Source: Christiangramia forsetii KT0803 (GTDB lineage Bacteria; Bacteroidota; Bacteroidia; Flavobacteriales; Flavobacteriaceae). From it: a stretch of DNA of 64,000 bases. Below, piece after piece: positions 38,034-60,970 of this stretch; position 1 is the stretch's first letter; every line of letters starts with the position of its first letter. The notes beneath the pieces were generated by a model that saw only the letters and a program-made list of their open reading frames with translations, made no database searches and was not told where the DNA came from. Both the position numbers and the translations under genes were made by a program. The DNA lies in the NCBI RefSeq assembly GCF_000060345.1, contig NC_008571.1, forward strand, positions 3,414,501 through 3,478,500, written 5' to 3'.

Positions 38034-39620
38034 TTAACTTTTGGAAAGTTTCAGTTTCATTCCAGGTTTCAGGCTACTGGTGTTCATATCGTTCCAAGAC
38101 CTCAAATTTTGTACCGTAACGCCCGGAAACTTCTTCGAAATACTCCAGAGAGAGTCCCCATTCTTCACTGTATAAATTCTTGCATTTGAATTTTCACTGG
38201 AATTTGACGACTTAGAACTGGAAGCCACCTCTACTGGTTTACGTGGATATATCGTTAAATACTGCCCTACTCGAAGGTTATTACTTCTCATATTATTCCA
38301 TCGCTTAATACTACTTATACCAACTCCATATTTTTCAGCGATCTTCCCTAAATAATCTCCACTTCTTACTCTATATCGAATACGATCTTCGGTCTTAACA
38401 TATTTAGGGAGTTGTTTTTTCTCTTCTACCAATTGATTTTCTGCAAAATCATAGATGGCACTTTCATTAGAAACAAATTTCCCTGTAGCCTGCTTTGGAA
38501 GTCTTAAACTATATTTTTCATCTTCAACAAAAGGAATGATATCTAACTTAAAACTTGGATTTAAAAACTGTAGCATTTCTTTTTCGACACCCGTTACTTT
38601 AGTAATTTGATCAAAATTTAGTAACTGCTTCACCTGTATGGTATCTGTTTCAAAATAGACTACATCAGGTTTTGAAGGCTGAAAATTATGCTCATTAGCA
38701 TATTCAAACAAATAAAGTGTAGCTAAAAAGGCCGGTACATAACCCGCTGTTTCACGTGGAAGAAATCTTCTTAAATGCCAGTAATCGGTTGAACCACCGC
38801 TTCTTCTAATAGCTTTTGAAACATTTCCAGGACCAGAATTATAAGATGCAAGCGCGAGATCCCAATCTCCAAAAACTTTATAAAGACTCGCCAGATATTG
38901 AGCGGCAGCTTCTGTAGACCTTTCAGGATCCATACGTTCATCTACATAAGAACTCACATCTAAATCATGCATTTTACCTGTAGTGAACATAAACTGCCAT
39001 AATCCGGTAGCTCCCACACGTGATCGTGCCCTGGGATTAAGCGCAGACTCAACGATAGCCAGGTATTTAATCTCTAAAGGAATATCATATTTGTCAAGCT
39101 CCTGCTCAAACATTGGGAAATAATAGCTGCTCAGAGCCATTAAGCGTTCCATACCGCGCTTATTCCTTTTTAAATAAGACTTTATAACACTCTCCAGAAT
39201 GGGGTTATATTCAATATTAAAAGGCGTTCTGGCATTTAATTTGGCAAGACGAGCCTTAAGAGTATCTGTAGGAAGCTCTTTATAAACTACCTCTTCATAA
39301 TCCTGCTCTTTAATACTCTCCTGCATTTCATCAAACAGATCTGAATTTGTGAGTTCCAGCATCCATAAAGAGTCAATAGTTTGAGCATGGGGAAGATCCT
39401 TAAGTTTTACCTTGGAAGAATCCCTTATCACAGCAGAAATTGGCAACTTATCTTTAAATTCGGGATCAGGCTCTGCAAGCTTGATCTCTGTATCGTCGCT
39501 TTTTTGAAATATCTGAACCCTGAAATTGGCTTTTTCAACCCGTTCCTTGTTCTTTTTTTCCTGTGCCAGCGTAGAAATTCCCGCCAGGAGCAACAGCATT
39601 AAAAATTTTCGTTTCAGCAT
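38034..39620 (-). CDS. Membrane-bound lytic transglycosylase (MltD-like) with two LysM domains
   Basis: The protein has 528 residues. A signal peptide (AGISTLAQ) is followed by an SLT domain with the catalytic Glu in AIVESALNPRARSRVGATGLWQ. Two LysM repeats lie at the C-terminus (YRVRSGDYLGKIAEKYGV and YTVKNGDSLWSISKKFPGV). It cleaves glycan strands with formation of 1,6-anhydro ends. A 14/16 match to parS (38748-38763) lies inside the coding sequence. Confidence 0.9.
   Translation of the reverse strand: MLKRKFLMLLLLAGISTLAQEKKNKERVEKANFRVQIFQKSDDTEIKLAEPDPEFKDKLPISAVIRDSSKVKLKDLPHAQTIDSLWMLELTNSDLFDEMQESIKEQDYEEVVYKELPTDTLKARLAKLNARTPFNIEYNPILESVIKSYLKRNKRGMERLMALSSYYFPMFEQELDKYDIPLEIKYLAIVESALNPRARSRVGATGLWQFMFTTGKMHDLDVSSYVDERMDPERSTEAAAQYLASLYKVFGDWDLALASYNSGPGNVSKAIRRSGGSTDYWHLRRFLPRETAGYVPAFLATLYLFEYANEHNFQPSKPDVVYFETDTIQVKQLLNFDQITKVTGVEKEMLQFLNPSFKLDIIPFVEDEKYSLRLPKQATGKFVSNESAIYDFAENQLVEEKKQLPKYVKTEDRIRYRVRSGDYLGKIAEKYGVGISSIKRWNNMRSNNLRVGQYLTIYPRKPVEVASSSKSSNSSENSNARIYTVKNGDSLWSISKKFPGVTVQNLRSWNDMNTSSLKPGMKLKLSKS
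38748..38763. other. Possible degenerate parS site inside the MltD-like gene
   Basis: TGTTTCACGTGGAAGA matches the palindrome TGTTCCACGTGGAACA at 14 of 16 positions and keeps the CACGTG core. It is in coding sequence and one of its half sites is imperfect, so this is the weakest of the four sites. Confidence 0.45.
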
Positions 39621-39669
39621 ACATTCATTTTACATTAACAAACGAAAAGTTATCAAACTTCGTACCTCG

Positions 39670-40854
39670 TTAATTTTTAATAGCATCAATTCCCGGTAAA
39701 GATTTTCCTTCCAACATCTCAAGCATAGCCCCACCGCCGGTTGAGACATAACTTACCTTATCTTCAAGACCGAATTTTTTAACAGCGGCAACAGAATCCC
39801 CTCCTCCAACAAGAGAAAAAGCACCATTTTTGGTAGCTTCAGCAATAGCCTCTCCTAATTCAATAGTTCCTTTGGCAAAAGTGTCCATTTCAAACACTCC
39901 CAGGGGTCCATTCCAAAGAATGATCTTTGATTGAGCTATAACATCAGAGAAATTTCTAATTGTTTCAGGACCAACATCCAGTCCCATCCAACCATCAGGA
40001 ATATTGTCTACACTTTCTGTTTGTGTACTCGCCTGCTCTGAAAAGCTATCAGCAATTATCGAGTCTACCGGCAGATGAATTTCAACTCCTTTCTCTTTAG
40101 CTTTCTTTAGAATTTCAAGAGCCAGCTCCTGCTTATCGTCTTCAACCAAAGAGTTTCCAATATGGCCTCCCTGAGCTTTGATAAAAGTATACGTCATCCC
40201 TCCACCAATAATAAGGTGGTCTATTTTATCAAGAATATTTTCAATAACAGTGATCTTTGAAGAAACTTTTGCACCTCCAAGAACAGCAGTTACGGGCTTT
40301 TCAGTACTATTTAGAACCTTATCCAGACTTTTTATCTCTTTAGCCAGCAGATATCCAAAACATTTATCTTCAAAAAATTTAGCAACCACCGTGGTTGAGG
40401 CATGAGCTCTATGGGCAGTGCCAAAAGCATCATTTACATAAATATCACCTAATTTTGAAAGATTTCTTGCAAAGGTCTCGTCTCCATTTTTTTCCTCTTC
40501 ATGAAAACGGAGATTTTCGAGCAATAGGATCTCCCCCGGTTCTAATTCTGCCGCCTTGGTTTCTACTTCTTCCCCAACACAATCTTCTACAAATTTCACT
40601 TCTACTCCAAGTACTTCTGAAACCTTGCTGGTAATATGCTGAAGTGAATATTTACTTTCTTTCCCCTTAGGCCTTCCAAGGTGAGACATCAAAACAACAC
40701 TCCCACCATCTTCTAAAATCTTAATAATTGTTGGTTTTGCCGCTTCAATACGATTAGCATCGGTTACCTCCATATCCTCATTTAAAGGAACATTAAAGTC
40801 CACTCTAATGAGCGCCTTTTTATTATTAAAATTGTAGTCTTCGATAGTTTTCAT
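39670..40854 (-). CDS. pgk: Phosphoglycerate kinase
   Basis: The protein has 394 residues, normal for the family. It carries [20 protein letters not shown] near residue 17, [24 protein letters not shown] and the nucleotide loop VGGGDSVAA near the C-terminus. It converts 1,3-bisphosphoglycerate and ADP to 3-phosphoglycerate and ATP in glycolysis. It is divergent from holB, and both promoters share a 60-base gap. Confidence 0.98.
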
Positions 40855-40869
40855 AGTATTGCTTTATTA

Positions 40870-40877
40870 CAAATATA
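40870..40877 (-). promoter_or_regulatory. -7 promoter box TATATTTG for pgk
   Basis: This is an exact TAnnTTTG match on the minus strand, 15 bases before the pgk ATG. The same 8-mer occurs on the plus strand at 40912 for holB, so two back-to-back promoters lie 34 bases apart. Confidence 0.6.
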
Positions 40878-40911
40878 ATTTTTTCCGAAGATAATAAAGC
40901 TTATATAATTT

Positions 40912-40919
40912 TATATTTG
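40912..40919 (+). promoter_or_regulatory. -7 promoter box TATATTTG for holB, almost touching its start
   Basis: This is an exact TAnnTTTG match that ends three bases before the ATG at 40923. Transcription from it would begin at or next to the start codon, so the mRNA would be leaderless. Confidence 0.6.
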
Positions 40920-40922
40920 CCT

Positions 40923-42080
40923 ATGCTTTTTAACGATATAATTGGCCTCCCACACATAAAAAATCATCTGACGACGACGGCCGACAGAAATAGAATTCCG
41001 CATGCGCAACTTTTTACCGGAAAGTCTGGAAGTGGTGCTCTGCCTATGGCTATCGCCTATGCTCAATATATTCTATGTAAAAATACCGGTGGTGAGAATG
41101 ATTCTAACACGGCTGCGGGCTGCAACCTTAAGTTTAACAATCATTCTCATCCAGATCTCCATTTTGCTTTCCCTGTTGCTACCAATGATAAAATAAAGAG
41201 TCAGCCCATTTCTTCTCATTTTCTTGATGAATGGAGAAACTTTCTAAAAACTAATCCCTACGGAAGTCTTTACGACTGGTATCAGAGTTTAGGGATTGAA
41301 AAAAAACAGGGGAAAATTGGAGTTCACGAAGCCCAGAATATTGTAAAGTCACTTTCATTAAAAGCTTATGAAGGCGGATTTAAGGTGATGATCATTTGGA
41401 TGGCAGAAAAAATGAATATGGAAGCTGCCAATAAATTATTGAAATTAATTGAGGAGCCACCAAATAAAACCGTTTTCCTACTAATATCAGAAGATGAAGA
41501 ACAAATAATCCAAACCATACGTTCCAGATGTCAAAGTTTATATTTTCCACCTTTAAGTGAGGCAGATATTGCAAATACATTGGCAGAAAAGGAAAATTGT
41601 AGTCCTGCAATAGCTAAAAAGATCGCCCATCAGGCAAATGGAGATTATACAAAAGCGATCCATATTTTAAGGAAGAATTCTGGCGATGAACAGTTTGAAG
41701 CCTGGTTTATAAGTTGGGTACGAAGTGCCTTTAAAGCAAAAGGAAATAAATCTACGGTGCTGGAACTTGTTTCGTGGAGTGAGGAAATTGCGGCATTGGG
41801 CCGTGAAACACAAAAAAGCTTTTTACTCTATTGTATAGATTTTTTCCGTCAATCATTATTGCTTAACTATAAAGCAAAAAGCCTGGTCTATTTAGAACCT
41901 TCAGCTGAAAAATTTAAACTTGAAAACTTTGCTCCATATGTACATGGAAATAATATTACTGAAATTACTTCGGCATTAGAAACGGCAATTTATCATATTG
42001 AAAGAAACGGTAACGCTAAAATAATTCTAACCGATCTCTCTATTAAACTAACCAGATTTTTACACAAAAAAGCAGCTTAA
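40923..42080 (+). CDS. holB: DNA polymerase III delta' subunit
   Basis: The protein has 385 residues from the ATG at 40923; a TTG two codons upstream lies inside the promoter box. It is an AAA+ clamp-loader protein with VHEAQNIVKSLSLKAYEGGFKVMIIWMAEKMN and SRCQSLYFPPL patterns. The P-loop position reads GKSGSGALP, without the Lys-Thr of a true Walker A, and only two of the usual zinc cysteines remain near residues 52-68. Loss of ATP binding is normal for delta'. It loads the beta clamp with the tau and delta subunits. Confidence 0.88.
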   Translation: MLFNDIIGLPHIKNHLTTTADRNRIPHAQLFTGKSGSGALPMAIAYAQYILCKNTGGENDSNTAAGCNLKFNNHSHPDLHFAFPVATNDKIKSQPISSHFLDEWRNFLKTNPYGSLYDWYQSLGIEKKQGKIGVHEAQNIVKSLSLKAYEGGFKVMIIWMAEKMNMEAANKLLKLIEEPPNKTVFLLISEDEEQIIQTIRSRCQSLYFPPLSEADIANTLAEKENCSPAIAKKIAHQANGDYTKAIHILRKNSGDEQFEAWFISWVRSAFKAKGNKSTVLELVSWSEEIAALGRETQKSFLLYCIDFFRQSLLLNYKAKSLVYLEPSAEKFKLENFAPYVHGNNITEITSALETAIYHIERNGNAKIILTDLSIKLTRFLHKKAA

Positions 42081-42082
42081 AC

Positions 42083-42478
42083 ATGGATAACCTAACAACT
42101 AATATTACTGAAATTTTAATCCTTTTATTTATTCTAATCACTTTTATGCAGTCTGGAATAGACAAAGCGGCAGACTGGAAAGGGAATACAGGATGGCTAA
42201 AAGAACATTTTTCGGGAACTATATTATCGGGAATGGTGCCTTTGATGGTAGGCATTATAATGATTATTGAAATTATAACCGGCCTACTGGCTATTGCGGC
42301 CATTATACATCTATTAGCTTATGATGATTCATTATTTGCATTATATACCTGTATTCTTGCCTGCGTAACATTGTTAATGCTACTTTTTGGACAGCGTATC
42401 GCCAAAGATTATGCAGGAGCCTTTACATTAACAGGTTATTTTATAGTTTCAATCCTGGGAGTTTATATCCTGAGTTAA
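42083..42478 (+). CDS. DoxX-like small membrane protein
   Basis: The protein has 131 residues with four membrane helices. The opening (ILILLFILITFMQSGIDKAADWKGNTGWLKEHF) is like DoxX/DoxD-family proteins. Its start follows the holB stop by two bases, so the two are co-transcribed. Function is unclear; DoxX members are linked to redox or quinone chemistry in other bacteria. A strong terminator follows. Confidence 0.8.
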   Translation: MDNLTTNITEILILLFILITFMQSGIDKAADWKGNTGWLKEHFSGTILSGMVPLMVGIIMIIEIITGLLAIAAIIHLLAYDDSLFALYTCILACVTLLMLLFGQRIAKDYAGAFTLTGYFIVSILGVYILS

Positions 42479-42496
42479 ACTAAAATTAAAGACAAT

Positions 42497-42530
42497 AAAA
42501 AAAGCTTCAGAAAAATCTGAAGCTTTTTTT
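42497..42530. terminator. Bidirectional terminator after the DoxX-like gene
   Basis: AAGCTTCAGA and TCTGAAGCTT form a stem with an AAAA loop, extended by an A-run and a T-run on the two sides to about 15 base pairs. It lies between convergent genes and can serve both. Confidence 0.88.
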
Positions 42531-42551
42531 ATTTAATAAGCTTTGAAAGAA

Positions 42552-43106
42552 TTACTCCTCCTCAGCTACTTCTTCTTCGGTTGATTCAGCTTCTTCTCCA
42601 CCGTAACCTTCATTTAATTCAGTTAAAATATCCTGAGTGATATCTAAACCTTCTTCAGCATACATGATGTTTGCGCTTTCGTTAGATCCAAAGATATATG
42701 TATAGTTATTTTCTTCACCATAATCCTTTACATAATCTTTAATTTTAGTTACTACAGAATCCATAACAGAGTTACTTTCCTCTCTTAAGCGGTTTCCAAC
42801 CATTTGTTGCTGTTGCTGAAGCATTTGTTGCTTTTGCATAAGTTCCTGTTCTTTCTCCTTACGTTGAGATTCAGACATTGAGTTCATTTGAGACTGGTAA
42901 GCCTGAACTTCCTCCTGGAAAGCTTTTGCTGCCGAATCTAGTTGACTCCTAACAGAATCAGATTTAGAAGTGAAATCAGCTTCCACATCTTTCATCTCTT
43001 TATATTCCTTAATTAAAACAGTAGTATCTACATAAGCTGTTTTTTGCTCGTTACACGATACCATCATAATTGCAACTGCTGCAATTCCAATAAATCTTCT
43101 GATCAT
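42552..43106 (-). CDS. OmpH/Skp-like periplasmic chaperone, lipoprotein form
   Basis: The protein has 184 residues. A signal peptide with lipobox (IMMVSCNE) is followed by TAYVDTTVLIKEYKEMKDVE, a Gln-rich coiled coil (MQKQQMLQQQQQMVGNRL), and an acidic tail. This is the OmpH/Skp layout, in which long helical arms hold unfolded outer-membrane proteins. The lipid anchor differs from classical soluble Skp. It has a full promoter. Confidence 0.85.
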   Translation of the reverse strand: MIRRFIGIAAVAIMMVSCNEQKTAYVDTTVLIKEYKEMKDVEADFTSKSDSVRSQLDSAAKAFQEEVQAYQSQMNSMSESQRKEKEQELMQKQQMLQQQQQMVGNRLREESNSVMDSVVTKIKDYVKDYGEENNYTYIFGSNESANIMYAEEGLDITQDILTELNEGYGGEEAESTEEEVAEEE

Positions 43107-43125
43107 AATTTTTCGTTTTGAATCG

Positions 43126-43153
43126 CAAATGTATAAAAGTATTTTTTGTACAA
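43126..43153 (-). promoter_or_regulatory. Full Bacteroidota promoter for the OmpH-like gene
   Basis: On the minus strand TTG (43153-43151) and TACATTTG (43133-43126) are 17 bases apart, and the ATG follows 19 bases later. This fits TTG-n(17-23)-TAnnTTTG. Confidence 0.68.
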
Positions 43154-43241
43154 AAACAGAAAAGTGATTACTTATAATTAATTTTGATTATAAATAAATG
43201 TAAAATAGATTTTTGTTATTAGGAATAAGGCTTTTTACGGC

Positions 43242-43257
43242 TTTCTATCGATAGAAA
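43242..43257. promoter_or_regulatory. Perfect 16-bp palindrome upstream of the OmpH-like gene
   Basis: TTTCTATCGATAGAAA is fully self-complementary with no loop, a form typical of a dimeric regulator site and poor as an RNA hairpin. It lies 89 bases upstream of the OmpH promoter's -33 element and beyond the methyltransferase stop. Confidence 0.45.
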
Positions 43258-43275
43258 TTACTTTTTTCGGTATCA

Positions 43276-43291
43276 ACTCTTTATAAAGAGT
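43276..43291. promoter_or_regulatory. Second perfect 16-bp palindrome in the same gap
   Basis: ACTCTTTATAAAGAGT is fully self-complementary. Its centre is 34 bases from the centre of the first palindrome, about three helical turns. No T-run supports a terminator role. Confidence 0.42.
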
Positions 43292-43317
43292 AATAAAAAC
43301 CATTAGAGCGCCTTATA

Positions 43318-44136
43318 TTAAGTTTTCGACTCTTTTTTGAAGAAATAAGTGATTGAAGAATACTCTCCCGAAGACTTTGCCCTTTGATTTGATAGAAATC
43401 CTCTATAAATTGCATTTAACAGATTTGAAGATTTCGGTTTATTTTTTTCACTCAACAAGCTAACATAATAAGCATCAAACTTGAGAGGCTTTTCATTCAC
43501 TAACTTAAATCCGTGTTCAGCAAATTTTTCTTTGATCCCGTTTCTTGAGAAATGCCAAAGGTGTCTTGGCACATCCCAGGCAGCCCAATTTTCATTATAG
43601 TATTTAGAATCGTAAGAATTGAAATTAGGAACTGCAATTATTAACAGGCCATCATCTTTAAGCAAGGTCTTTAATTCTGAGAGTTTATTTTGGAAATCTG
43701 GAATATGCTCCAGAACGTGCCAAAGACTTATAACATCAAATTTCTTATTCTCTAATTCTGAAATTTCAGATTTTAGATTTAAGCCTTTTAAAGCTCCCAG
43801 ATTACGAGCAGTATTATTTGGCTCAATTCCGTCTACAATCCAATGAGAGTTTTTCATTTCATTTAGAAACTCTCCGGTACCTGCCCCAAAATCCAGAATA
43901 CTTCCCTGCTTAAAATATCTATAGATCCATTTAGCTTTTTTTGAAAGCATATGGGATTTTACAAAATGGTAAATCCTGTCTTGAAAATTTCGCTGCGAAT
44001 CGCTGTGAGAAATATAATCCTCGCTTTCGTAATATCTAGGTAAATTTTCTGGTACGGGATGCGTCTTTAAGATTCCCTTTTCGTATTCCTCGATATTAAA
44101 TTTCTCACCACTTACCAGATGATCTTTGCAAACCAT
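43318..44136 (-). CDS. Class I SAM-dependent methyltransferase
   Basis: The frame can begin with TTG at 44187, but the ATG at 44136 gives MVCKDHLVSGEKFN, which matches where I expect the family to begin, so 272 residues are annotated. The SAM-binding loop is SILDFGAGTGEFL, and ISLWHVLEHIPD is the post-II motif. A C-terminal pattern with WAAWDVPRHLWHF fits UbiG/WbmB-like methyltransferases often linked to surface glycans. The substrate is unknown. It ends the DUF4175-ybeY-mnmG run. Confidence 0.82.
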   Translation of the reverse strand: MVCKDHLVSGEKFNIEEYEKGILKTHPVPENLPRYYESEDYISHSDSQRNFQDRIYHFVKSHMLSKKAKWIYRYFKQGSILDFGAGTGEFLNEMKNSHWIVDGIEPNNTARNLGALKGLNLKSEISELENKKFDVISLWHVLEHIPDFQNKLSELKTLLKDDGLLIIAVPNFNSYDSKYYNENWAAWDVPRHLWHFSRNGIKEKFAEHGFKLVNEKPLKFDAYYVSLLSEKNKPKSSNLLNAIYRGFLSNQRAKSSGEYSSITYFFKKESKT

Positions 44137-44201
44137 TTTAGGTTGAAGAGTAGTATTGGGTTTGTATTTATTTTCTGTTGTGATCAATTATAAAATTCAT
44201 T

Positions 44202-44217
44202 TGTTCCACGTGGAACA
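44202..44217. other. parS: parS site (perfect palindrome), between mnmG and the methyltransferase gene
   Basis: TGTTCCACGTGGAACA is a perfect 16-bp palindrome with the CACGTG core and GTT/AAC arms of the ParB target parS. It lies eight bases from the mnmG stop, in non-coding DNA. An identical site lies at the other end of mnmG. Confidence 0.85.
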
Positions 44218-44224
44218 TCAAAAA

Positions 44225-46096
44225 TTATCTACCCATATAAACGAGTAGCACCGAAATATCATTGGGACTTACCCCACTTATTCTAGAAGCCTGTGAAACC
44301 GTAGCAGGTTGCACTTTCTTCAATTTTTCGCGAGCCTCGTAAGACATTGATTTGATATTAGAGTAATCAAAATTCTTCGGAATTTTCATATCCTCCAGAC
44401 GATTCAGCTTATCAGCATTATTCTTCTCCTTCTCAATATAACCGGAATACTTCACTTGTATTTCGGTTTGCTCGATCATCTCTTCATTGAGTTCATTTTC
44501 TGAGATAAATTCTTCAACGCCGCTAAAATTTTTCACATCCTCCATAGTGATTTGGGGTCTGGAAAAAACTTTAAATACTTTATCGCTTTGTTTCATGGGA
44601 GAAGAATTCCTTTTCTCCAAAACGGGATTAGCTTCTTCAGGAACTACACTTAAATCTTTCAGGTATTGTACAAACTTAAGAGACTTATCCTTTTTCTCCT
44701 CCATCTTTCTCATACGCTTCTCAGACGCTAAACCTAAATTATAAGATCTTTCAGTCAATCTAAAATCGGCATTATCCTGCCTTAAAAGTGTACGATATTC
44801 AGCACGGCTAGTAAACATTCTATATGGCTCTTCGGTGCCTTTCGTAATTAGATCATCAATTAAAACACCAATATAAGCTTCATTTCTTTTAAGGATAAAC
44901 TCATCCTTTTCCTGGACTTTTAGCGCCGCATTTATACCAGCCATCATTCCCTGGCAAGCCGCTTCTTCATATCCAGTGGTACCGTTTATCTGTCCAGCGA
45001 AATATAGACCTTCCACAAGTTTTGTTTCCAGGGTATGCTTTAACTGTGTAGGCGGAAAATAATCGTATTCTATTGCATAACCGGGACGGAAAAATTTCAC
45101 ATTTTCAAAACCTGCAACAGAACGTAAAGCTTTAAACTGAACATCTTCCGGCAGCGAAGTTGAAAAACCATTTACATAAACCTCTACCGTATTCCAGCCT
45201 TCCGGTTCTACAAATAGTTGATGCCTGTCTTTATCTGCAAAACGATTAATCTTATCTTCAATAGAAGGGCAATATCTAGGTCCAATACTTTGAATTCTTC
45301 CATTAAACATTGGCGACCTATCAAAACCTTCTTTTAAAATATCATGCACCTCATTAGAGGTGTAAGTCATATGACAGGAACGTTGTTTGGAAAGCGGTTT
45401 AGTTTCATCTGAATATGAAAATTTACCAGGAATATCATCCCCCGGCTGCTCTGTCATTTTTGAATAGTCTAAGGATCTTCCATCCACTCGAGGAGGTGTT
45501 CCTGTTTTCATTCTACCAGCTTCAAAACCTACCTCAATTAGATCTTTTGTTATTCCAGTTGCAGCTCTTTCACCAGCTCTACCCCCACCAAATTGTTTAT
45601 CACCAATATGAATAAGCCCGTTTAAAAAAGTACCGTTCGTACAAACCACACTTTTAGCAAAAACTTCTAAACCTAAAGAAGTTCTCACTCCAATTACTTT
45701 ATCATTTTCAATAATAAGTCCCGCAACCATCTCTTGATAAAAATCAAGATTCGGGGTCCCCTCCAATTTCAACCTCCAATCTTCTGCAAACCTCATTCTA
45801 TCACTTTGCACTCTTGGACTCCACATTGCAGGTCCTTTAGATTTATTCAGCATTTTGAACTGGATAGCGCTGGTATCGCTAACAATACCACTATAACCGC
45901 CCATCGCATCAATCTCCCTAACTATTTGCCCTTTTGCAATACCACCCATGGCAGGATTACAACTCATTTGAGCAATATTTTGAAGATTCATGGTGATAAG
46001 AAGGGTTTTGCTACCCATATTTGCAGCAGCAGCAGCGGCTTCACTTCCGGCATGCCCAGCTCCAACTACAATAACATCATACTGCTTTTCGAACAT
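44225..46096 (-). CDS. mnmG: tRNA uridine-5-carboxymethylaminomethyl modification enzyme MnmG (GidA)
   Basis: The protein has 623 residues. The FAD-binding GAGHAGSEAAAAAANMG lies near residues 12-28, followed by the NPAMGGIAKGQIVREIDAMGG stretch, TGTPPRVDG and GYEEAACQGMMAGINAAL. With MnmE it builds the 5-substituent of wobble U34 in several tRNAs. In many bacteria mnmG (gidA) sits by the origin. Here it is bracketed by two perfect parS palindromes 1.9 kb apart. Confidence 0.97.
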   Translation of the reverse strand: MFEKQYDVIVVGAGHAGSEAAAAAANMGSKTLLITMNLQNIAQMSCNPAMGGIAKGQIVREIDAMGGYSGIVSDTSAIQFKMLNKSKGPAMWSPRVQSDRMRFAEDWRLKLEGTPNLDFYQEMVAGLIIENDKVIGVRTSLGLEVFAKSVVCTNGTFLNGLIHIGDKQFGGGRAGERAATGITKDLIEVGFEAGRMKTGTPPRVDGRSLDYSKMTEQPGDDIPGKFSYSDETKPLSKQRSCHMTYTSNEVHDILKEGFDRSPMFNGRIQSIGPRYCPSIEDKINRFADKDRHQLFVEPEGWNTVEVYVNGFSTSLPEDVQFKALRSVAGFENVKFFRPGYAIEYDYFPPTQLKHTLETKLVEGLYFAGQINGTTGYEEAACQGMMAGINAALKVQEKDEFILKRNEAYIGVLIDDLITKGTEEPYRMFTSRAEYRTLLRQDNADFRLTERSYNLGLASEKRMRKMEEKKDKSLKFVQYLKDLSVVPEEANPVLEKRNSSPMKQSDKVFKVFSRPQITMEDVKNFSGVEEFISENELNEEMIEQTEIQVKYSGYIEKEKNNADKLNRLEDMKIPKNFDYSNIKSMSYEAREKLKKVQPATVSQASRISGVSPNDISVLLVYMGR

Positions 46097-46115
46097 ATCC
46101 TAATTTAAATTTTAT

Positions 46116-46547
46116 CTATTGTTCCACGTGGAACAATGCTATTTTTTCTTCTTCTTTACGTCGCATCAATTCCTGCTCCCTTTCAGTTTTATCTTTAAAA
46201 CCGCAGAAATGTAGAATTCCGTGAATTAAAACCCGCTTTAATTCCTCATCAAATTCAGTATTAAAACTATTAGCATTCTCCTGAACTCTTTCTGTACTTA
46301 TATATATATCGCCTTGCAAGGTATTCCCAAGGGTGTTATCAAAACTAATAATGTCGGTATACGTATCGTGAGCCAGATATTCAAGATTAATTTTATGGAG
46401 ATACTCATCATCGCAGAAAATAAAACTGATGTCACCAATATATTTATTTTCAGATTCGATAGCTTTTTCTATCCAATTGCGGTAATCCTGTTCTCTATTA
46501 AGAACAAAGTCGTTTTCACTAAAAAAATTAATCTCTCCCTTTTCCAA
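46116..46547 (-). CDS. ybeY: Endoribonuclease YbeY (rRNA maturation)
   Basis: The protein has 143 residues. The metal site region reads HGILHFCGFKDKTE, where the first two His are present and the third, seen as GYDH in E. coli, is replaced by Lys-Asp-Lys. From memory this form is usual in Bacteroidota. The frame has no ATG near its 5' end, so a TTG start at 46547 is used, overlapping DUF4175 by 20 bases. The last codons (LFHVEQ) are written in the parS palindrome. It processes 16S rRNA ends. Confidence 0.88.
   Translation of the reverse strand: MEKGEINFFSENDFVLNREQDYRNWIEKAIESENKYIGDISFIFCDDEYLHKINLEYLAHDTYTDIISFDNTLGNTLQGDIYISTERVQENANSFNTEFDEELKRVLIHGILHFCGFKDKTEREQELMRRKEEEKIALFHVEQ
46120..46135. 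other. parS: parS site (perfect palindrome) in the ybeY 3' end
   Basis: TGTTCCACGTGGAACA is identical to the site at 44202. It is extended by two more paired bases on each side to a 20-bp palindrome. It encodes the C-terminal FHVEQ of YbeY and lies 24 bases upstream of the mnmG start. Confidence 0.87.
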
Positions 46548-49779: not shown

Positions 49780-49868
49780 GTAACGGCAATCTTTTCTTAA
49801 AAATACAATAAAATTAGATCTTATTCAGGATGCCTGCCCCAGTGTTTAGGATTGGTTGAATAAGGTTG

Positions 49869-49876
49869 TATCTTTG
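49869..49876 (+). promoter_or_regulatory. -7 promoter box TATCTTTG for gltX
   Basis: This is an exact TAnnTTTG match 20 bases before the gltX ATG. TTG triplets lie 10 and 14 bases upstream, which is too close for the usual -33 spacing. Confidence 0.55.
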
Positions 49877-49896
49877 CCAGCAAAAATCAAGAAAAT

Positions 49897-51414
49897 ATGT
49901 CTTCTAAAGTAAGAGTAAGATTTGCTCCCAGCCCCACCGGTCCATTACATATAGGTGGTGTAAGAACAGCCTTATATAATTATTTATTCGCTAAAAAACA
50001 CGGTGGTGATTTTGTATTAAGAATTGAAGATACAGATCAAAACCGCTATGTAGAAGGAGCTGAAGATTATATTATAGAAGCCCTAAATTGGTGCGGAATC
50101 CCTTATGACGAAGGCCCTGGTAAAGAAAAAGGATTTGGACCGTATAGACAAAGTGAGCGTAAAGACCAATATCGTGAATATGCCGAGAAACTGATAAAAT
50201 CTGGAAATGCATATTATGCTTTTGATACTTCAGATGAACTTGACGGGCATAGAAAAGATCATGAGGAAAAAGGAAAAACATTTATCTATAACTGGCATAA
50301 TCGCCAGAAACTGAAAAATTCGCTTTCTCTTTCTCAAGAAGAAGTTCAGGAAAAATTAGATGGTGAAGAAGACTATGTGATCCGTTTTAAATCTCCCCAG
50401 GATGAAACTTTACATTTAAAAGATGTGATTCGCGGAGATATGGAAATAGATACCAATATTCTTGACGACAAAGTGCTTTTTAAAAGCGACGGGATGCCTA
50501 CCTATCACCTGGCAAATATCGTAGATGATCACTTAATGGAGATCACCCATGTTATTCGTGGTGAAGAATGGCTGCCTTCCCTAGCCTTACATTATATGCT
50601 CTATAGAGCTTTTGGATGGAATGCTCCCCAATTTGCCCACCTTCCACTTATTTTAAAACCTCAGGGTAAAGGAAAATTAAGTAAAAGAGATGGGGAAAAA
50701 ATGGGATTCCCGGTATTTCCTTTAGAATGGAAAGATCCAGAATCTGGAGATATTTCTGCGGGATATAAAGAAGAAGGTTATTTTCCAGAAGCGGTGGTGA
50801 ATATGCTGGCTTTTTTAGGATGGAACCCTGGTACAGAAGAGGAATTCTTCGGATTAGAGGATTTGACGAAAGCTTTTGAACTGGAAAGAGTTCATAAAGG
50901 AGGCGCTAAATTTGATCCTGAAAAAACAAAATGGTTTCAACAGCATTATATTCAATTAGCTGATAACGAATTTCTGGCAGATGAATTTGAAAAGCGTCTT
51001 GAAAAGAAAGAGATTGAAGCTGATAAAATATATATATCTGAAGTGGTTGCTTTAATCAAGGAAAGAGTTGTTTTTGTGGAAGATTTCTGGGATCAGGGAT
51101 ATTTTTTCTTTATTGCTCCTACTTCATTTGATCCAAAAGATTCAAAAAAGGCCTGGAAAGAAGGAACTAGTGAACTTATGACAGAACTGAATGAATATCT
51201 AAAGTCTATAGATAATTTTGAAGCTGAACATTTACAGGAAACAGTTAAAGGCTGGATAAAGAGTAAAGAAATAGGTTTTGGAAAAGTAATGATGCCATTG
51301 AGAATTGCTCTGGTTGGAGCGTTACAGGGGCCGGATCTTTATAAAATAGCTGAATTCATAGGAAAGGAAGCCACTCTAAAACGTATTCAAAAAGCTGTAG
51401 ATACCTTAAAATAA
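49897..51414 (+). CDS. gltX: Glutamyl-tRNA synthetase
   Basis: The protein has 505 residues. The class I HIGH motif is in APSPTGPLHIGG at residues 10-21 and the KMSKS loop is KLSKRDG near residue 262. It charges tRNA-Glu. It has its own -7 box and is closed by a strong terminator. It is separate from glnS at 53.7 kb, so both enzymes exist here and no indirect Gln-tRNA route is needed. Confidence 0.97.
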   Translation: MSSKVRVRFAPSPTGPLHIGGVRTALYNYLFAKKHGGDFVLRIEDTDQNRYVEGAEDYIIEALNWCGIPYDEGPGKEKGFGPYRQSERKDQYREYAEKLIKSGNAYYAFDTSDELDGHRKDHEEKGKTFIYNWHNRQKLKNSLSLSQEEVQEKLDGEEDYVIRFKSPQDETLHLKDVIRGDMEIDTNILDDKVLFKSDGMPTYHLANIVDDHLMEITHVIRGEEWLPSLALHYMLYRAFGWNAPQFAHLPLILKPQGKGKLSKRDGEKMGFPVFPLEWKDPESGDISAGYKEEGYFPEAVVNMLAFLGWNPGTEEEFFGLEDLTKAFELERVHKGGAKFDPEKTKWFQQHYIQLADNEFLADEFEKRLEKKEIEADKIYISEVVALIKERVVFVEDFWDQGYFFFIAPTSFDPKDSKKAWKEGTSELMTELNEYLKSIDNFEAEHLQETVKGWIKSKEIGFGKVMMPLRIALVGALQGPDLYKIAEFIGKEATLKRIQKAVDTLK

Positions 51415-51435
51415 AGGTGTTTCCGAAATATTTTA

Positions 51436-51471
51436 AAACCGACTTCTTCCAATCAAGAGGTCGGTTTTTTT
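51436..51471 (+). terminator. Rho-independent terminator of gltX
   Basis: AAACCGACTTCTT pairs with AAGAGGTCGGTTT (13 pairs, one of them G-U) around a six-base loop, followed by a T-run. Confidence 0.87.
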
Positions 51472-51533
51472 ATTTTATAAGGATTCAAGCTTTTATTCTT
51501 AAATTGAAGCATTCTTAATTTAATAGTTATTAC

Positions 51534-52496
51534 GTGCTTAATTTAGTTTTAATACCCATTCTGGGAGTTTTTCTAATATTGATTATTTTCTCCGGAATTT
51601 TCATTGTAAAGCAGCAAACCTCTGCTGTTGTAGAGAGATTCGGAAAATTTACAAGTATTAGAAGTTCCGGTCTTCAATTAAAAATTCCCTTGATAGATCA
51701 GGTTGCAGGTAGAATTAACTTAAAGGTACAGCAGCTTGATGTGATGGTTGAAACAAAAACCAAAGATAATGTTTTTGTAAAACTAAAAATCTCTGTACAG
51801 TTTCAGGTTCGGCAGGATAATGTATATGATGCGTTCTACAAGCTAGAAAGTCCGCACGACCAGATAACTTCTTATGTATTTGATGTAGTACGTGCAGAAG
51901 TGCCTAAAATGAAGCTAGATGATGTTTTTGAGCGGAAAGATGATATAGCTATTGCTGTAAACCGGGAATTGAATGAAGCCATGGGTGATTACGGATATGA
52001 TATTATTAGAACCCTGGTGACCGATATAGATCCTGATGTAAAGGTAAAAGCAGCAATGAACCGCATTAATGCCGCCGAAAGAGAAAAAGTAGCTGCAGAA
52101 TATGATGGCGAGGCAGAACGAATACGAATTGTGGCCAAAGCAAGAGCTGAAGCTGAAAGTAAGCGATTACAAGGTCAGGGTATTGCAGATCAAAGAAGAG
52201 AAATAGCGAGGGGACTTGAAGAAAGTGTGGATGTTCTTAATAATGTTGGAATTAATTCTCAGGAAGCTTCAGCATTAATCGTAGTTACTCAGCATTATGA
52301 TACTTTACAGGCAATTGGAGAGGAAACTAATAGTAATTTAATATTGCTTCCTAACTCACCGCAAGCGGGTAGTGAAATGCTTAATAATATGGTTGCTTCA
52401 TTTTCAGCTTCTAACCAGATAGGTGAAGCGATGAAAGAACAAAATCGTAAAAAGGCAGACGATGAAAAGAAAAAACAGGATCGTGGAAAGGAATAA
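51534..52496 (+). CDS. SPFH/band 7 domain protein (stomatin/QmcA-like)
   Basis: The protein has 320 residues. An N-terminal membrane helix (about 5-27) is followed by the band 7 domain (QTSAVVERFGKFTSIRSSGL, then LDVMVETKTKDNVFVKL) and a helical C-terminal part rich in Ala, Glu and Arg. Such proteins form large rings at the membrane and support quality control with FtsH-like proteases. The start is GTG at 51534; no ATG is available upstream. The usual NfeD partner is not adjacent. Confidence 0.9.
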   Translation: MLNLVLIPILGVFLILIIFSGIFIVKQQTSAVVERFGKFTSIRSSGLQLKIPLIDQVAGRINLKVQQLDVMVETKTKDNVFVKLKISVQFQVRQDNVYDAFYKLESPHDQITSYVFDVVRAEVPKMKLDDVFERKDDIAIAVNRELNEAMGDYGYDIIRTLVTDIDPDVKVKAAMNRINAAEREKVAAEYDGEAERIRIVAKARAEAESKRLQGQGIADQRREIARGLEESVDVLNNVGINSQEASALIVVTQHYDTLQAIGEETNSNLILLPNSPQAGSEMLNNMVASFSASNQIGEAMKEQNRKKADDEKKKQDRGKE

Positions 52497-52531
52497 AACT
52501 TCTTCAATGTTAGCAGAATTTTCCTAATAAA

Positions 52532-52555
52532 AAAAGCCTCCGAGTGGAGGCTTTT
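52532..52555. terminator. Bidirectional terminator after the SPFH gene
   Basis: AAAAGCCTCC and GGAGGCTTTT form a ten-base-pair stem with the loop GAGT, with an A-run before it and a T-rich end after it. It lies between convergent genes. Confidence 0.88.
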
Positions 52556-52576
52556 CCAATATTTGTTTTAAAGAAT

Positions 52577-52813
52577 TTAATCTTTTATATAATTTCTTTC
52601 GGTATTCTTTACTCCCATGATCTTGGATACTGCTTTTATAGCAAGTAATTTATGGATCAGAGAGCCTACGCTACTGCCTAAAAGGGATTTGGGAGATAGA
52701 TGTTCCTTAGTTTGATCTAAACTAAGCTTGATTTCCTCTTTATCGATTTCAGTCTGTAACTTTAAAATCTTAAGATCCTTATCAATTTCTTCAAAAGATG
52801 AATATATTCTCAT
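52577..52813 (-). CDS. Small conserved protein, DUF6327-like
   Basis: The protein has 78 residues: a charged N-terminal helix (FEEIDKDLKILKLQTEIDKEEI) and a less polar C-terminal half (LLGSSVGSLIHKLLAIKAVSKIMG). It resembles the short DUF6327 proteins that follow YtxH and holin-like genes in Flavobacteria. It starts two bases after the holin-X-like stop. Function is unknown. Confidence 0.72.
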   Translation of the reverse strand: MRIYSSFEEIDKDLKILKLQTEIDKEEIKLSLDQTKEHLSPKSLLGSSVGSLIHKLLAIKAVSKIMGVKNTERNYIKD

Positions 52814-52815
52814 TA

Positions 52816-53172
52816 CTATTCTTTTTCGTTAAAAACTGATTTAGAAAATTTCTTAAGAACAAGTTTTTCAATTGGTTCTTTTCCGAAGATAAAAATCAAA
52901 ATAAAAACAATTATATAGAATCCTCCGACAATAAAATAACCCGAACTCGGGATACCAATAGCCTGGCTTATTACAATAGCTAAGGCAAAAGAAAGCATTA
53001 TTCCAGCAACACTCAATAGAAAGCCCATAATTAGGAAACGTACAAGAGCAGTTGCTCCCTTCATCCCCTGCCTAAAGGCCCTAAGTTTATAAAATTCAGA
53101 ATTACTTTGAATGTAAGTCTGAATATTATTATTTAAATCATGAATACTGTCAGATAGTTTTTCAAATGCCAT
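52816..53172 (-). CDS. Holin-X/YqjE-like membrane protein
   Basis: The protein has 118 residues with two membrane helices (about 45-70 and 78-100) after an amphipathic N-terminal helix. This is the phage-holin superfamily 6/YqjE layout. Such genes beside ytxH-like genes are seen in envelope stress sets; a lysis role is unlikely here, as no phage genes are near. It is the middle gene of a three-gene operon. Confidence 0.75.
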   Translation of the reverse strand: MAFEKLSDSIHDLNNNIQTYIQSNSEFYKLRAFRQGMKGATALVRFLIMGFLLSVAGIMLSFALAIVISQAIGIPSSGYFIVGGFYIIVFILIFIFGKEPIEKLVLKKFSKSVFNEKE

Positions 53173-53179
53173 ATAAAGA

Positions 53180-53554
53180 TTATACTACAGCTTTGTCTGG
53201 TGAATTTCCAGCAGACTTGCCTGATTTATCTTTTTGCAATTTAGCATTTTGTTTTCTTAATTCCTCAAGTTTCGTCTCCATTGCAGATAAAATATCATCT
53301 GCTTTATGGCTGGCTGAAGAAAGCGTTTCTTCAAGTCGTTGTTCAAAATCTACCCTGGCCTTTTTAGCTTTATCAGTTAAATTAGAACTGGTTTCATGAT
53401 AACGTTTGTTTATGTTATCCTGAGCTTTTTGAGCGTCCTTTTTAAGCTTTTTACGTGTTTTATCACCGCTATCCGGAGCATATAGTAATCCTACACCAGC
53501 TCCTATTGCTGCACCTGTAATTAACGCTAAAAGGGTATTTCCTGTATTTGCCAT
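53180..53554 (-). CDS. YtxH domain protein
   Basis: The protein has 124 residues. An N-terminal Gly-rich hydrophobic helix (LLALITGAAIGAGVGLLYAPDSG) is followed by a long Lys/Ala/Glu helix (TRKKLKKDAQKAQDNI). This is the YtxH pattern of general-stress proteins. It leads the trio with the holin-X-like and DUF6327-like genes. A -7 box lies 30 bases upstream. Confidence 0.85.
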   Translation of the reverse strand: MANTGNTLLALITGAAIGAGVGLLYAPDSGDKTRKKLKKDAQKAQDNINKRYHETSSNLTDKAKKARVDFEQRLEETLSSASHKADDILSAMETKLEELRKQNAKLQKDKSGKSAGNSPDKAVV

Positions 53555-53584
53555 AAGTTTTTGAATTTTAAGTTATTATTCCTC

Positions 53585-53592
53585 CAAAGATA
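53585..53592 (-). promoter_or_regulatory. -7 promoter box TATCTTTG for the YtxH operon
   Basis: This is an exact TAnnTTTG match on the minus strand, 30 bases before the ytxH ATG. No -33 TTG was found. Confidence 0.5.
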
Positions 53593-53680
53593 ACAGAAGC
53601 CAGCACCTTTGGCTGTTAATAACCGGTTAATATGTTAAAAAATCAATGCTAAAGTATTCTTAAAAAATTTAGAAAACTTA

Positions 53681-55360
53681 CTAATTCTTGATCTTAGCCC
53701 AGGAATCGCGCAAGCTAACGGTTCTATTAAAAATAGGTCTTGCAGCCGTAGAATCTCTATCTACACAAAAATAACCTATACGCTGAAACTGGACTTTATC
53801 CTGTTCTTTGGCGTCTTTTAGGCCTGGTTCTAAATAGCCGGTAACTATTTTCAAAGATTCAGGATTTACGAAATCAAGGTAATCCCGGTCTTTTATACCA
53901 TCAGGCATTTCTTCAGTAAAAAGCCTATCATAAAGCCTGATTTCAGCTTCAATAGCATGCTTTACAGATACCCAGTGCAATGTCCCTTTCACTTTTCTCA
54001 AAGATTCTTCAGTACCGCTTCCACTCTTACTTTTGAGATCGTACGTACAATGAATTTCAGTAATATTACCTTCTGTATCCTTCACCACATCTTCTCCTTT
54101 AATGATATAGGCATTTTTCAGTCGAACCTCTTTTCCCAGGGTTAATCTGAAAAACTTTCTGTTCGCACTTTCCTTAAAATCCTCTTTTTCAATATATAAT
54201 TCTCGTGAAAATGGCACTTTTCTACTACCTGCAGTTTCGTCTTCAGGATTATTTTCAGCATCTAACCACTCCTCTTCTCCTTCAGGATAATTAGTGATCA
54301 CAAGTTTTACAGGATCTAACACCCCCATCACACGTGGAGCTATTTTATTTAAATCTTCCCTGGCGCAGAATTCAAGATGAGAAACATCAATTAAATTTTC
54401 TCTCTTCCCAACTCCAATAGAATCAGCAAATTTTCTAATAGATTCCGCAGTATAACCTCTTCTTCTTAAACCGGAAATAGTAGGCATTCTAGGGTCATCC
54501 CATGAATCTACAAATCCCTTTTCTACCAGTTGAAGTAATTTTCTTTTACTAACAATGGTATGACTTAAATTACGACGAGCAAATTCTCGCTGTTTAGGCT
54601 CAAATTCGCCGGGTTTACTTACTTTTTTAATAAACCAGTTATAAAGTTCACGGTGGGGTAAGAATTCCAGGGTGCAGAATGAGTGTGACACATGTTCAAT
54701 AAAATCACTTTCGCCATGAGCCCAGTCATACATTGGATAAATTTTCCAGTTATCACCCGTACGATGATGACTTTTATGAAGACATCTATACATAACAGGA
54801 TCCCTCATAAGCATATTGCCTGCACCCATGCTTATTTTAGCCCTTAAAACATCCCCTTTTTCAGGTGTTTCGCCATTCTTCATCTTTTCAAAAAGATCAA
54901 GATTTTCTTCTACGGAACGATTTCTAAATGGACTTGCTTGTCCAGGCTGTGTTGGAGTTCCTTTTTGTTCCGCGATTTCTTCTGAAGTCTGGCTGTCTAC
55001 ATAAGCATCTCCATTTTTGATCATTTCTACCGCCCAGTCATAAAGCTGTTGAAAATAATCTGAAGCATAACATTCTTCTGCCCATTTAAATCCCAGCCAC
55101 TCAATATCCTTCTTTATGGCATCAACATACTCCTGCTCTTCTTTTGCAGGATTTGTATCATCAAAACGAAGGTTTACCGGAGCATTATAGCGCTCCCCTA
55201 GCCTAAAATTCAGACAAATTGAAGAAGCGTGCCCAATATGAAGATATCCATTAGGTTCCGGTGGAAAACGGAATTTCAGATCCTCCTTTTTATAATTATT
55301 GCTTAGATCCTCTTCAATGATTTGCTCGATAAAATTGAGCGACTTTTTTTCTTCGTTCAT
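53681..55360 (-). CDS. glnS: Glutaminyl-tRNA synthetase
   Basis: The protein has 559 residues. The HIGH motif is in PPEPNGYLHIGHASS near residue 31 and the KMSKS-like loop is VSKRKLL near residue 272. A two-barrel anticodon-binding domain makes up the C-terminal third. It charges tRNA-Gln directly. A -7 box lies 19 bases upstream. Confidence 0.97.
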   Translation of the reverse strand: MNEEKKSLNFIEQIIEEDLSNNYKKEDLKFRFPPEPNGYLHIGHASSICLNFRLGERYNAPVNLRFDDTNPAKEEQEYVDAIKKDIEWLGFKWAEECYASDYFQQLYDWAVEMIKNGDAYVDSQTSEEIAEQKGTPTQPGQASPFRNRSVEENLDLFEKMKNGETPEKGDVLRAKISMGAGNMLMRDPVMYRCLHKSHHRTGDNWKIYPMYDWAHGESDFIEHVSHSFCTLEFLPHRELYNWFIKKVSKPGEFEPKQREFARRNLSHTIVSKRKLLQLVEKGFVDSWDDPRMPTISGLRRRGYTAESIRKFADSIGVGKRENLIDVSHLEFCAREDLNKIAPRVMGVLDPVKLVITNYPEGEEEWLDAENNPEDETAGSRKVPFSRELYIEKEDFKESANRKFFRLTLGKEVRLKNAYIIKGEDVVKDTEGNITEIHCTYDLKSKSGSGTEESLRKVKGTLHWVSVKHAIEAEIRLYDRLFTEEMPDGIKDRDYLDFVNPESLKIVTGYLEPGLKDAKEQDKVQFQRIGYFCVDRDSTAARPIFNRTVSLRDSWAKIKN

Positions 55361-55379
55361 AACTGTTTAAAATAAAAGG

Positions 55380-55387
55380 CAAATTTA
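55380..55387 (-). promoter_or_regulatory. -7 promoter box TAAATTTG for glnS
   Basis: This is an exact TAnnTTTG match on the minus strand, 19 bases before the glnS ATG. No -33 TTG was found at normal spacing. Confidence 0.5.
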
Positions 55388-55472
55388 TCAAAATTTAAAT
55401 CGATACAGACAGCTTAGGCCTATTAGTATCAGTAAAATTCAATAACTTCGGAATATTAACCTTAATATAAAC

Positions 55473-56189
55473 ATGGAGGACATTTATAAAATCATCTTAT
55501 ACTCCGCATTTTCAGGAATTACAGTGTTTATTGGTGGTCTTCTTTCCAAATTCTATGGAGGCGGATTTAAAACTGACAACAGTAAAGCGGAATTATTCCA
55601 TTTTATTACCGCTTTTGGCGGAGGCATTCTGGTAGCAGCTATTGCTTTGGTCCTTGTTCCACGTGGAATGGAAAAACTTAATCTTCCAATATTAATGCTG
55701 GCATTCATTACCGGAGCATTCAGCGTCTTTTTTATTGATAGAAAACTTCAAAAATCGGGAAATACCTTATCACAACTTTTGGCTATGCTTTTAGATTTTA
55801 TTCCTGAAGCTATTGCCCTGGGCGCCATCTTTGCAACCGATCCTAAAACTGGAATTCTATTGGCTATTTTTATCGGTCTCCAAAACCTTCCGGAATCCTT
55901 TAATTCTTTTCAGGATCTAAAGAGCAATGGTTTAAGTGATAAAAAAAGTCTGATTATATTATTCTTTTTAAGCTTTTCCGGGATTTTAGGGGCGATCATC
56001 GGATACTTATTTCTGAAAGATCTACCACAGGTAACGGCATTTTTAATGGTATTCGCCAGTGGCGGAATTCTATATCTTATCTTTCAGGATATCGCTCCAA
56101 ATGTGAAGCTTAAAAAATCCTGGTTACCGGCCTTAGGGGCGAATTTGGGATTTCTAATAGGAATGATTGGAGAAAAACTTATTCAATAA
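55473..56189 (+). CDS. ZIP-like metal transporter family protein
   Basis: The protein has 238 residues with about eight membrane helices. The helix 4 and 5 signatures of ZIP proteins are recognisable but altered: LLDFIPEAIALGAIF instead of a His-led motif, and GLQNLPESF instead of HNxPEG. The metal-binding His are therefore Asp and Gln here. It may move a different ion, or be a divergent branch. A 14/16 parS match lies inside the gene. Confidence 0.82.
   Translation: MEDIYKIILYSAFSGITVFIGGLLSKFYGGGFKTDNSKAELFHFITAFGGGILVAAIALVLVPRGMEKLNLPILMLAFITGAFSVFFIDRKLQKSGNTLSQLLAMLLDFIPEAIALGAIFATDPKTGILLAIFIGLQNLPESFNSFQDLKSNGLSDKKSLIILFFLSFSGILGAIIGYLFLKDLPQVTAFLMVFASGGILYLIFQDIAPNVKLKKSWLPALGANLGFLIGMIGEKLIQ
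55655..55670. other. parS: parS site, 14/16, inside the ZIP-like gene
   Basis: TGTTCCACGTGGAATG keeps the complete left half and core of the palindrome at 44202 and 46120 and differs only in the last two bases. It is in coding sequence (VLVPRGME). Confidence 0.68.
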
Positions 56190-60174: not shown

Positions 60175-60205
60175 AACTTATCTTTAGTTAGGTTAATTCT
60201 TTCAT

Positions 60206-60945: not shown

Positions 60946-60953
60946 TAACTTTG
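60946..60953 (+). promoter_or_regulatory. -7 promoter box TAACTTTG for rpiB
   Basis: This is an exact TAnnTTTG match 17 bases before the rpiB ATG at 60971. It shows that the longer frame starting at 60938 would begin upstream of the transcript. Confidence 0.6.
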
Positions 60954-60970
60954 TCCCAAACAACATAACT

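What the first reader, a model, noticed from the sequence alone, without database searches (positions are those of the whole stretch)
38748..55670. Cluster of ParB target sites (parS) in one 17-kb stretch
TGTTCCACGTGGAACA occurs twice as a perfect 16-bp palindrome (44202, 46120), and at 14/16 at 55655 and 38748. A given perfect 16-mer is expected about once in four billion bases, so two copies within 2 kb are not chance. parS sites cluster near the origin in most bacteria, so this marks a centromere-like partition region although no parA, parB, gidB or dnaA gene is in the window.
Basis: partly seen in the sequence, partly recalled or inferred. Interest (0 to 1): 0.85.

Follow-up and report, generated by a model that had tools for sequence, protein, structure and literature searches.

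The report
Origin-flanking parS centromere beside mnmG
Short palindromes that most likely serve as the chromosome's centromere flank the mnmG gene at the inferred replication origin of a marine flavobacterium, about a megabase from the genes for their binding protein and for the replication initiator; this is a known kind of element, with unusual placement.

Summary
TGTTCCACGTGGAACA occurs perfectly at 44202 and 46120 and with two mismatches at 38748 and 55655. The 3.80-Mb genome has no other copy within two mismatches. The two perfect copies flank mnmG. An equivalent site lies just upstream of mnmG in 80 of 80 Flavobacteriaceae loci fetched by MnmG alone, and on both sides in 72. The 38748 copy lies inside a murein-transglycosylase gene, at that gene's strongest synonymous constraint within the genus, so it is probably functional. 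The 55655 copy has no counterpart in 20 relatives.

Strand asymmetry switches in this region, so the origin is here or close by. A conserved 520-bp spacer with DnaA-box-like words at 60446-60971 is a candidate oriC. The single ParB found, with a ParA beside it, is 1.23 Mb away and carries the parS-type residues. dnaA is 1.04 Mb away. No Smc or ScpA was detected.

Best reading: the chromosomal parS centromere of a ParABS system, a known kind of element. Worth follow-up: its placement, the codon-embedded site, and its retention in a family where ScpA was not found.

The parts
44202..44217 (.). parS site, perfect palindrome, in the gap between mnmG (3' side) and a methyltransferase gene
   Evidence: 24 of 24 genus genomes hold two sites within 1 mismatch, flanking mnmG in the 20 of 20 genus loci fetched; both mnmG flanks within 2 mismatches in 72 of 80 family loci
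46120..46135 (.). parS site, perfect palindrome, 5' side of mnmG, overlapping the last codons of ybeY
   Evidence: upstream site within 1 mismatch of TGTTYCACGTGRAACA in 80 of 80 family loci
38748..38763 (.). parS site with 2 mismatches, embedded in the coding sequence of a LysM/SLT murein transglycosylase gene
   Evidence: exact 12-bp core in 19 of 21 genus sequences, own included; highest synonymous constraint of 471 windows in the gene
55655..55670 (.). parS-like site with 2 mismatches inside a ZIP transporter gene; function doubtful
   Evidence: no counterpart in 20 of 20 genus relatives, 5 of which show the gene in the stretches fetched
44225..46096 (-). mnmG (gidA), tRNA uridine modification enzyme, lying between the two perfect sites
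   Evidence: Pfam GIDA 539.9 bits; TIGR00136 857 bits, cut-off 524.85
46116..46547 (-). ybeY, whose 3' end overlaps the parS at 46120
   Evidence: Pfam YbeY, TIGR00043, ORF ends, sequence
38034..39620 (-). murein transglycosylase (MltD-like, SLT plus LysM) that hosts the coding-embedded parS
   Evidence: Pfam SLT and LysM; best NCBIfam match is murein transglycosylase D, 211.5 bits, below its cut-off of 508
60446..60971 (.). candidate oriC: conserved AT-rich spacer between rnr and rpiB
   Evidence: rnr-rpiB spacer present in 20 of 20 genus loci; conservation; DnaA-box-like words within 1 mismatch 28 against a shuffle mean of 3.6 (largest 10) summed over 21 related genomes

Best explanation
These are the chromosomal parS sites of the bacterium's ParABS system, the only one found. 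ParB, made from a parAB locus 1.23 Mb away, binds the 16-bp palindromes beside mnmG and in mltD. It loads there as a CTP-dependent clamp and spreads over the flanking DNA; ParA then moves the duplicated origin regions apart. The mnmG-flanking pair is the main centromere and the mltD site is an auxiliary loading site. Shown here: the sites, their uniqueness, their conservation and synonymous constraint, the skew switch, and a parS-type ParB with an adjacent ParA. Inferred: binding, spreading, movement, the ranking of the sites, and the exact oriC. Canonical Smc-ScpAB loading, the other job of ParB-parS in many bacteria, probably does not happen here, because neither Smc nor ScpA was detected in this genome.
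For: Uniqueness and clustering. The pair in 24 of 24 genus genomes. The upstream site in 80 of 80 family loci selected by MnmG, not by parS; these are the best 80 of 576 that encode a relative. A site within 1 mismatch of TGTTYCACGTGRAACA in 361 of 392 sampled genomes of the phylum (backwards control 0-2 per genome), with mnmG within 1.5 kb in 24 of the 30 loci fetched. Synonymous constraint at the coding site. Skew switch. In the 8 single-contig genomes of the genus (16 of 24 dropped as multi-contig), treated as circular, parB lies at 61-73% and dnaA at 50-65% of the half-chromosome from parS, even in the two (G006, G007) where they sit on opposite arms, as symmetric inversions about a parS-centred axis would give. 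ParB residues 40-241 align to the solved ParB 7bnk (E 2.1e-52). In the columns where the aligned Noc chain 7nfu has Q, K, K, R it has R, Y, K, G; I identify these columns with positions 173, 179, 184 and 201 by spacing and by Noc's own residues. R173 with G201 is reported as conserved in ParB orthologs (PMC7383237, passages).
Against: No binding data. The skew change-point is broad: best 48.7 kb, within 2 log-units 41.2-50.8 kb in the free model but 45.7-95.8 kb in the symmetric one; the coarse sample at 3.42-3.44 Mb is intermediate and single samples are noisy. The candidate oriC at 60.7 kb scores 5.8 log-units below the best in the free model, 2.0 in the symmetric one. The 55655 site is not conserved. 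Two of 21 genus sequences lack the mltD core. 31 of 392 phylum genomes show no site within 1 mismatch, among them 2 of the 46 of this family, both of one genus. 8 of 80 family loci lack a second site within 300 bp downstream of mnmG.
Confidence: 0.93

Rival explanations
1. The palindromes are operators for a transcription factor controlling mnmG, ybeY or the methyltransferase gene rather than a centromere.
For: Two sites sit directly beside mnmG, one 5' and one 3' of it.
Against: One site lies inside mltD coding sequence under synonymous constraint. Elsewhere in the class the sites form clusters of up to five near mnmG, and in 6 of 30 loci no mnmG was found within 1.5 kb. The motif lies within 2 mismatches of the parS consensus TGTTTCACGTGAAACA, the tolerance used in PMC10197239 (passages). 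A parS-type ParB is present. Some local regulatory effect of bound ParB on these genes is still possible.
Confidence: 0.03
2. The sites are remnants of a plasmid or mobile element's partition locus integrated in the chromosome.
For: parA and parB are not next to the sites, as could be if an element had decayed.
Against: Sites and gene order (gltX, DUF4175, ybeY, mnmG, methyltransferase, ompH, holB, pgk, mltD) are kept in the genus loci and in many of the family loci; the neighbours with a known function are mostly housekeeping genes.
Confidence: 0.01
3. The sites are true parS, but the replication origin lies elsewhere, so the centromere is not origin-proximal.
For: The symmetric skew model allows a switch anywhere from 45.7 to 95.8 kb of the window coordinate within 2 log-units; only about a quarter of the genome was sampled.
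Against: Coarse samples place the switch between those at 3.33 and 3.52 Mb and the opposite switch near 1.6-1.8 Mb, so the origin should be within about 130 kb of the sites. The inferred symmetric inversions share the same axis.
Confidence: 0.03

Closest known systems
Chromosomal ParABS with origin-proximal parS clusters (for example Bacillus subtilis, Caulobacter, Pseudomonas aeruginosa, Myxococcus xanthus; general features recalled)
   Same: 16-bp palindrome, few sites clustered at the origin, a parA-parB pair, parS-type ParB residues
   Different: parAB lies 1.23 Mb from the sites here instead of near the origin (typical placement recalled); the two best sites flank mnmG; one site is carried in codons of mltD; Smc and ScpA were not detected
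parS clusters of gut Bacteroidetes (Bacteroides caecimuris, Muribaculum intestinale) in PMC10197239
   Same: parS cluster used with GC skew to mark the origin; origin not always at dnaA among the 12 strains; no known condensin found in the two Bacteroidetes (passages read)
   Different: Other members of the phylum; the passages read do not describe mnmG flanking, coding-embedded sites or family-wide ScpA absence. In my sample 169 of 198 phylum genomes do have ScpA
Noc and its binding site NBS (Firmicutes)
   Same: Related ParB-fold protein
   Different: Different DNA site (recalled); the ParB here has R and G where Noc 7nfu has Q and R

Membership tests
Chromosomal ParABS centromere (parS) | Sites match the parS consensus beyond chance | tested here: met
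   4 observed, 0.13 expected; none elsewhere within 2 mismatches
Chromosomal ParABS centromere (parS) | Sites cluster near the replication origin | tested here: met
   Skew switch between samples at 3.33 and 3.52 Mb, best estimate 48.7 kb in the window, broad interval. The origin itself was not mapped by experiment
Chromosomal ParABS centromere (parS) | Genome encodes ParB with parS-type specificity and an adjacent ParA | tested here: met
   Single HTH_ParB hit, 127.7 bits; adjacent ORF with a KGGVGKT motif matching ParA-type models but under their cut-offs; R and G at positions equated with 173 and 201
Chromosomal ParABS centromere (parS) | Sites conserved between species | tested here: met
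   24 of 24 genus genomes, 80 of 80 family loci upstream of mnmG, 361 of 392 phylum genomes
Chromosomal ParABS centromere (parS) | ParB binds and spreads from the sites in vivo | not testable with these tools
   needs ChIP-seq or gel shift
Smc-ScpAB-coupled ParB-parS loading site | Genome encodes Smc and ScpA | tested here: not met
   Best SMC_prok_B hit 26.6 bits against cut-off 567.35 (10 of 14 control genomes over the cut-off); no ScpA hit. ScpA rang in only 9 of 14 control genomes, so a diverged ScpA could be missed. MukB/MksB-type complexes were not searched genome-wide
Bacterial oriC (60446-60971) | Conserved non-coding AT-rich spacer with DnaA boxes at the skew switch | tested here: inconclusive
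   Conserved spacer and box enrichment, but the 21 genomes share ancestry, own-genome boxes have 1 or 2 mismatches, the whole window is not enriched in boxes and the change-point is broad

The most novel reading that the evidence does not exclude
In the Flavobacteriaceae the ParB-parS centromere has been kept in place beside mnmG although Smc-ScpAB was lost. Chromosome segregation would then rest on ParABS alone or on an undescribed condensin, and selection for ParB loading would be strong enough to dictate codons inside mltD.
Probability: 0.4. Interest if true: 0.65.

Novelty: new member of a known kind. Interest (0 to 1): 0.48.

Why it matters
It gives a precise, testable centromere and origin region for a marine flavobacterial group in which dnaA, often used to mark the origin, is about 1 Mb from it. 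It also points to a large bacterial family in which ParB-parS might be studied apart from Smc-ScpAB, and it shows what looks like a centromere site written into the codons of a protein gene.

Tried and rejected
DnaA-box search (TTATCCACA, 1 mismatch) over the whole window: 13 found, 19 expected by chance, so it does not locate an origin by itself. Rfam: only a tRNA. Weak SMC-model hits: the 1,389-aa and 1,219-aa ORFs match CheB and histidine-kinase models, and a 674-aa ORF weakly matches SMC/Rad50-related ATPases, far under the Smc cut-off; the four other weak places were not followed. Considered and rejected: Noc/NBS site, mobile-element remnant, chance.

Papers: the listings of searches showed no work on parS beside mnmG in Flavobacteriaceae. 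Those listings were capped (for example 25 of 41, 25 of 128, 20 of 99) and show titles and abstract starts only, so this is no proof that none exists. The main comparative parS survey (Livny 2007) is not held, and such sites may already be tabulated there. Passages were read of PMC10197239, PMC7383237 and PMC2768785 (an insect symbiont's origin; not used); a word search in PMC4255302 found none of five terms.

The synonymous-constraint test has limits. In the genus the next best non-overlapping window, at the LysM end, reaches 0.517 against 0.545. In the family set (51 loci after dropping 5 Christiangramia loci, 49 with the LPRE peptide) 16 keep the exact core codons against 0.6 expected, but the loci are not independent, and windows at the LysM end rank 1, 2, 4 and 5 while the site windows rank 3 and 6 of 233.

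On checking I lowered the novel reading from 0.45 to 0.40, because the ScpA search rang in only 9 of 14 control genomes and I had left that out; among those that did not ring are Thermus and Deinobacterium relatives, where I would have expected it (recalled).
Full report
Observation. Expected by chance in the window with up to 3 mismatches: 0.13.

Anatomy. The site at 44202 lies in the gap between mnmG and a methyltransferase gene. The site at 46120 lies 5' of mnmG and overlaps the end of ybeY. The site at 38748 is inside a SLT/LysM murein transglycosylase gene, and 55655 is inside a ZIP transporter gene.

Conservation. In the genus, 24 of 24 genomes carry two sites within 1 mismatch (in G020 they are on two contigs). 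In the 20 genus loci fetched they flank mnmG in every case. In 80 Flavobacteriaceae loci (by record title; the best 80 of 576) retrieved with MnmG alone as query, so not selected for parS, a site within 1 mismatch of TGTTYCACGTGRAACA lies less than 300 bp upstream of mnmG in 80 of 80. Both flanks carry a site within 2 mismatches in 72 of 80, within 1 mismatch in 65 of 80. In the phylum, 361 of 392 sampled genomes hold a site within 1 mismatch; the backwards control gives 0-2 per genome. Of the 31 without, 2 are of this family (2 of its 46 in the sample, both of one genus). Thirty loci were fetched, all from the same class and in listing order, not at random; 24 of 30 have mnmG within 1.5 kb.

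The coding-embedded site. Among 21 genus sequences of the transglycosylase gene, the codons CTT CCA CGT GAA over the site are kept in 19, 20, 21 and 21 sequences. The window has the highest synonymous excess of 471 windows in the gene: 0.545 against a gene mean of 0.124; the only two windows reaching it overlap the site, and the next best place, at the LysM end, has 0.517. In the wider family 24 of 56 loci with the gene have the site within 2 mismatches, including three where the gene lies 9-10 kb from mnmG. The exact core codons occur in 16 of 49 loci with the LPRE peptide (5 Christiangramia loci dropped), against 0.6 expected from codon usage (loci not independent, and LysM-end windows score as high or higher in that set). 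The 55655 site has no counterpart within 2 mismatches, or by its core, in the stretches fetched from 20 genus relatives, 5 of which show the ZIP gene.

Origin. Forty spaced samples show strand-corrected GC skew switching sign between those at 3.33 and 3.52 Mb (the one at 3.42 is intermediate) and back near 1.6-1.8 Mb; single samples are noisy and some lacked genes on one strand. Four-fold-site skew over 224 kb puts the switch at window position 48.7 kb, range 41.2-50.8 kb (free model) or 45.7-95.8 kb (symmetric model) at 2 log-units. The rnr-rpiB spacer is present in 20 of 20 genus loci at nearly constant length. Its inner 520 bp are conserved, with 28 DnaA-box-like words over 21 genomes against a shuffle mean of 3.6; shared ancestry inflates that contrast. 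It is my candidate oriC, at about 0.55 probability (a judgement, not computed).

ParAB and DnaA. The genome has one HTH_ParB hit at 0.893 Mb with a ParA-like gene beside it and one DnaA hit at 0.700 Mb: 1.23 and 1.04 Mb from parS. In 14 of 14 single-contig genomes examined (8 of the genus, 6 others of the class, two of them of the same family) both genes lie 0.67-2.26 Mb from parS. Multi-contig genomes were dropped (16 of 24 in the genus, 5 of 11 of the others), circularity was assumed, and rounded lengths were used for the six. In the genus the distances are 61-73% (parB) and 50-65% (dnaA) of the half-chromosome, including two genomes with the two genes on opposite arms. That is what inversions symmetric about parS would leave.

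ParB type. Aligned with solved chains, the ParB has R, Y, K, G in the four columns that are Q, K, K, R in Noc 7nfu. I equate these with positions 173, 179, 184 and 201 by spacing. R173 and G201 are reported as conserved in ParB orthologs (PMC7383237, passages). The GERR stretch of the CTP motif (function recalled) is present in the alignment with 7bnk.

Condensin. The best Smc hit has 26.6 bits against a cut-off of 567.35 (10 of 14 control genomes pass). ScpA was found in 169 of 198 phylum genomes; the 20 listed without it are this genome and 19 of its family, 9 more are not listed by the tool, and no same-family genome is among those with a match. The control rang in 9 of 14 genomes and not in Bacteroides ihuae, so the search may miss diverged copies. 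PMC10197239 reports no known condensin in two gut Bacteroidetes, and parS clusters at origins that do not always carry dnaA (passages). MukB/MksB-type complexes were not searched across the genome.

Verdict. This is almost certainly a genuine chromosomal parS cluster of ParABS, an established kind of element. The placement around mnmG, the codon-embedded site and the apparent absence of Smc-ScpAB are the points worth follow-up.

Noticed in passing
window 60005-60445: Two short ORFs (56 and 80 codons in the six relatives looked at) sit in the rnr-rpiB spacer; the 80-codon one is not open in this genome.
   Followed up: partly
window 11442-16526: F0F1 ATP synthase genes lie about 28 kb from mnmG, recalling the gidA-atp gene set beside oriC in other bacteria (recalled).
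   Followed up: no
G000:C1 and family-wide: ScpA was not found in the 20 listed genomes of this family, while 169 of the 198 phylum genomes sampled have it.
   Followed up: partly
L159:4958, L162:4962, L174:1792, L181:6062, L218:5032, L219:4998: A further parS-like site (CATTTCACGTGGAACA) recurs 4-5 kb upstream of mnmG in four Aquimarina loci and two others, outside the matches of the genes I had queries for.
   Followed up: partly
phylum sample, genus g2 of family f1: This genus has 3 to 10 parS-like sites per genome within 1 mismatch, while the other genera of the family in the sample have 0 to 3.
   Followed up: no
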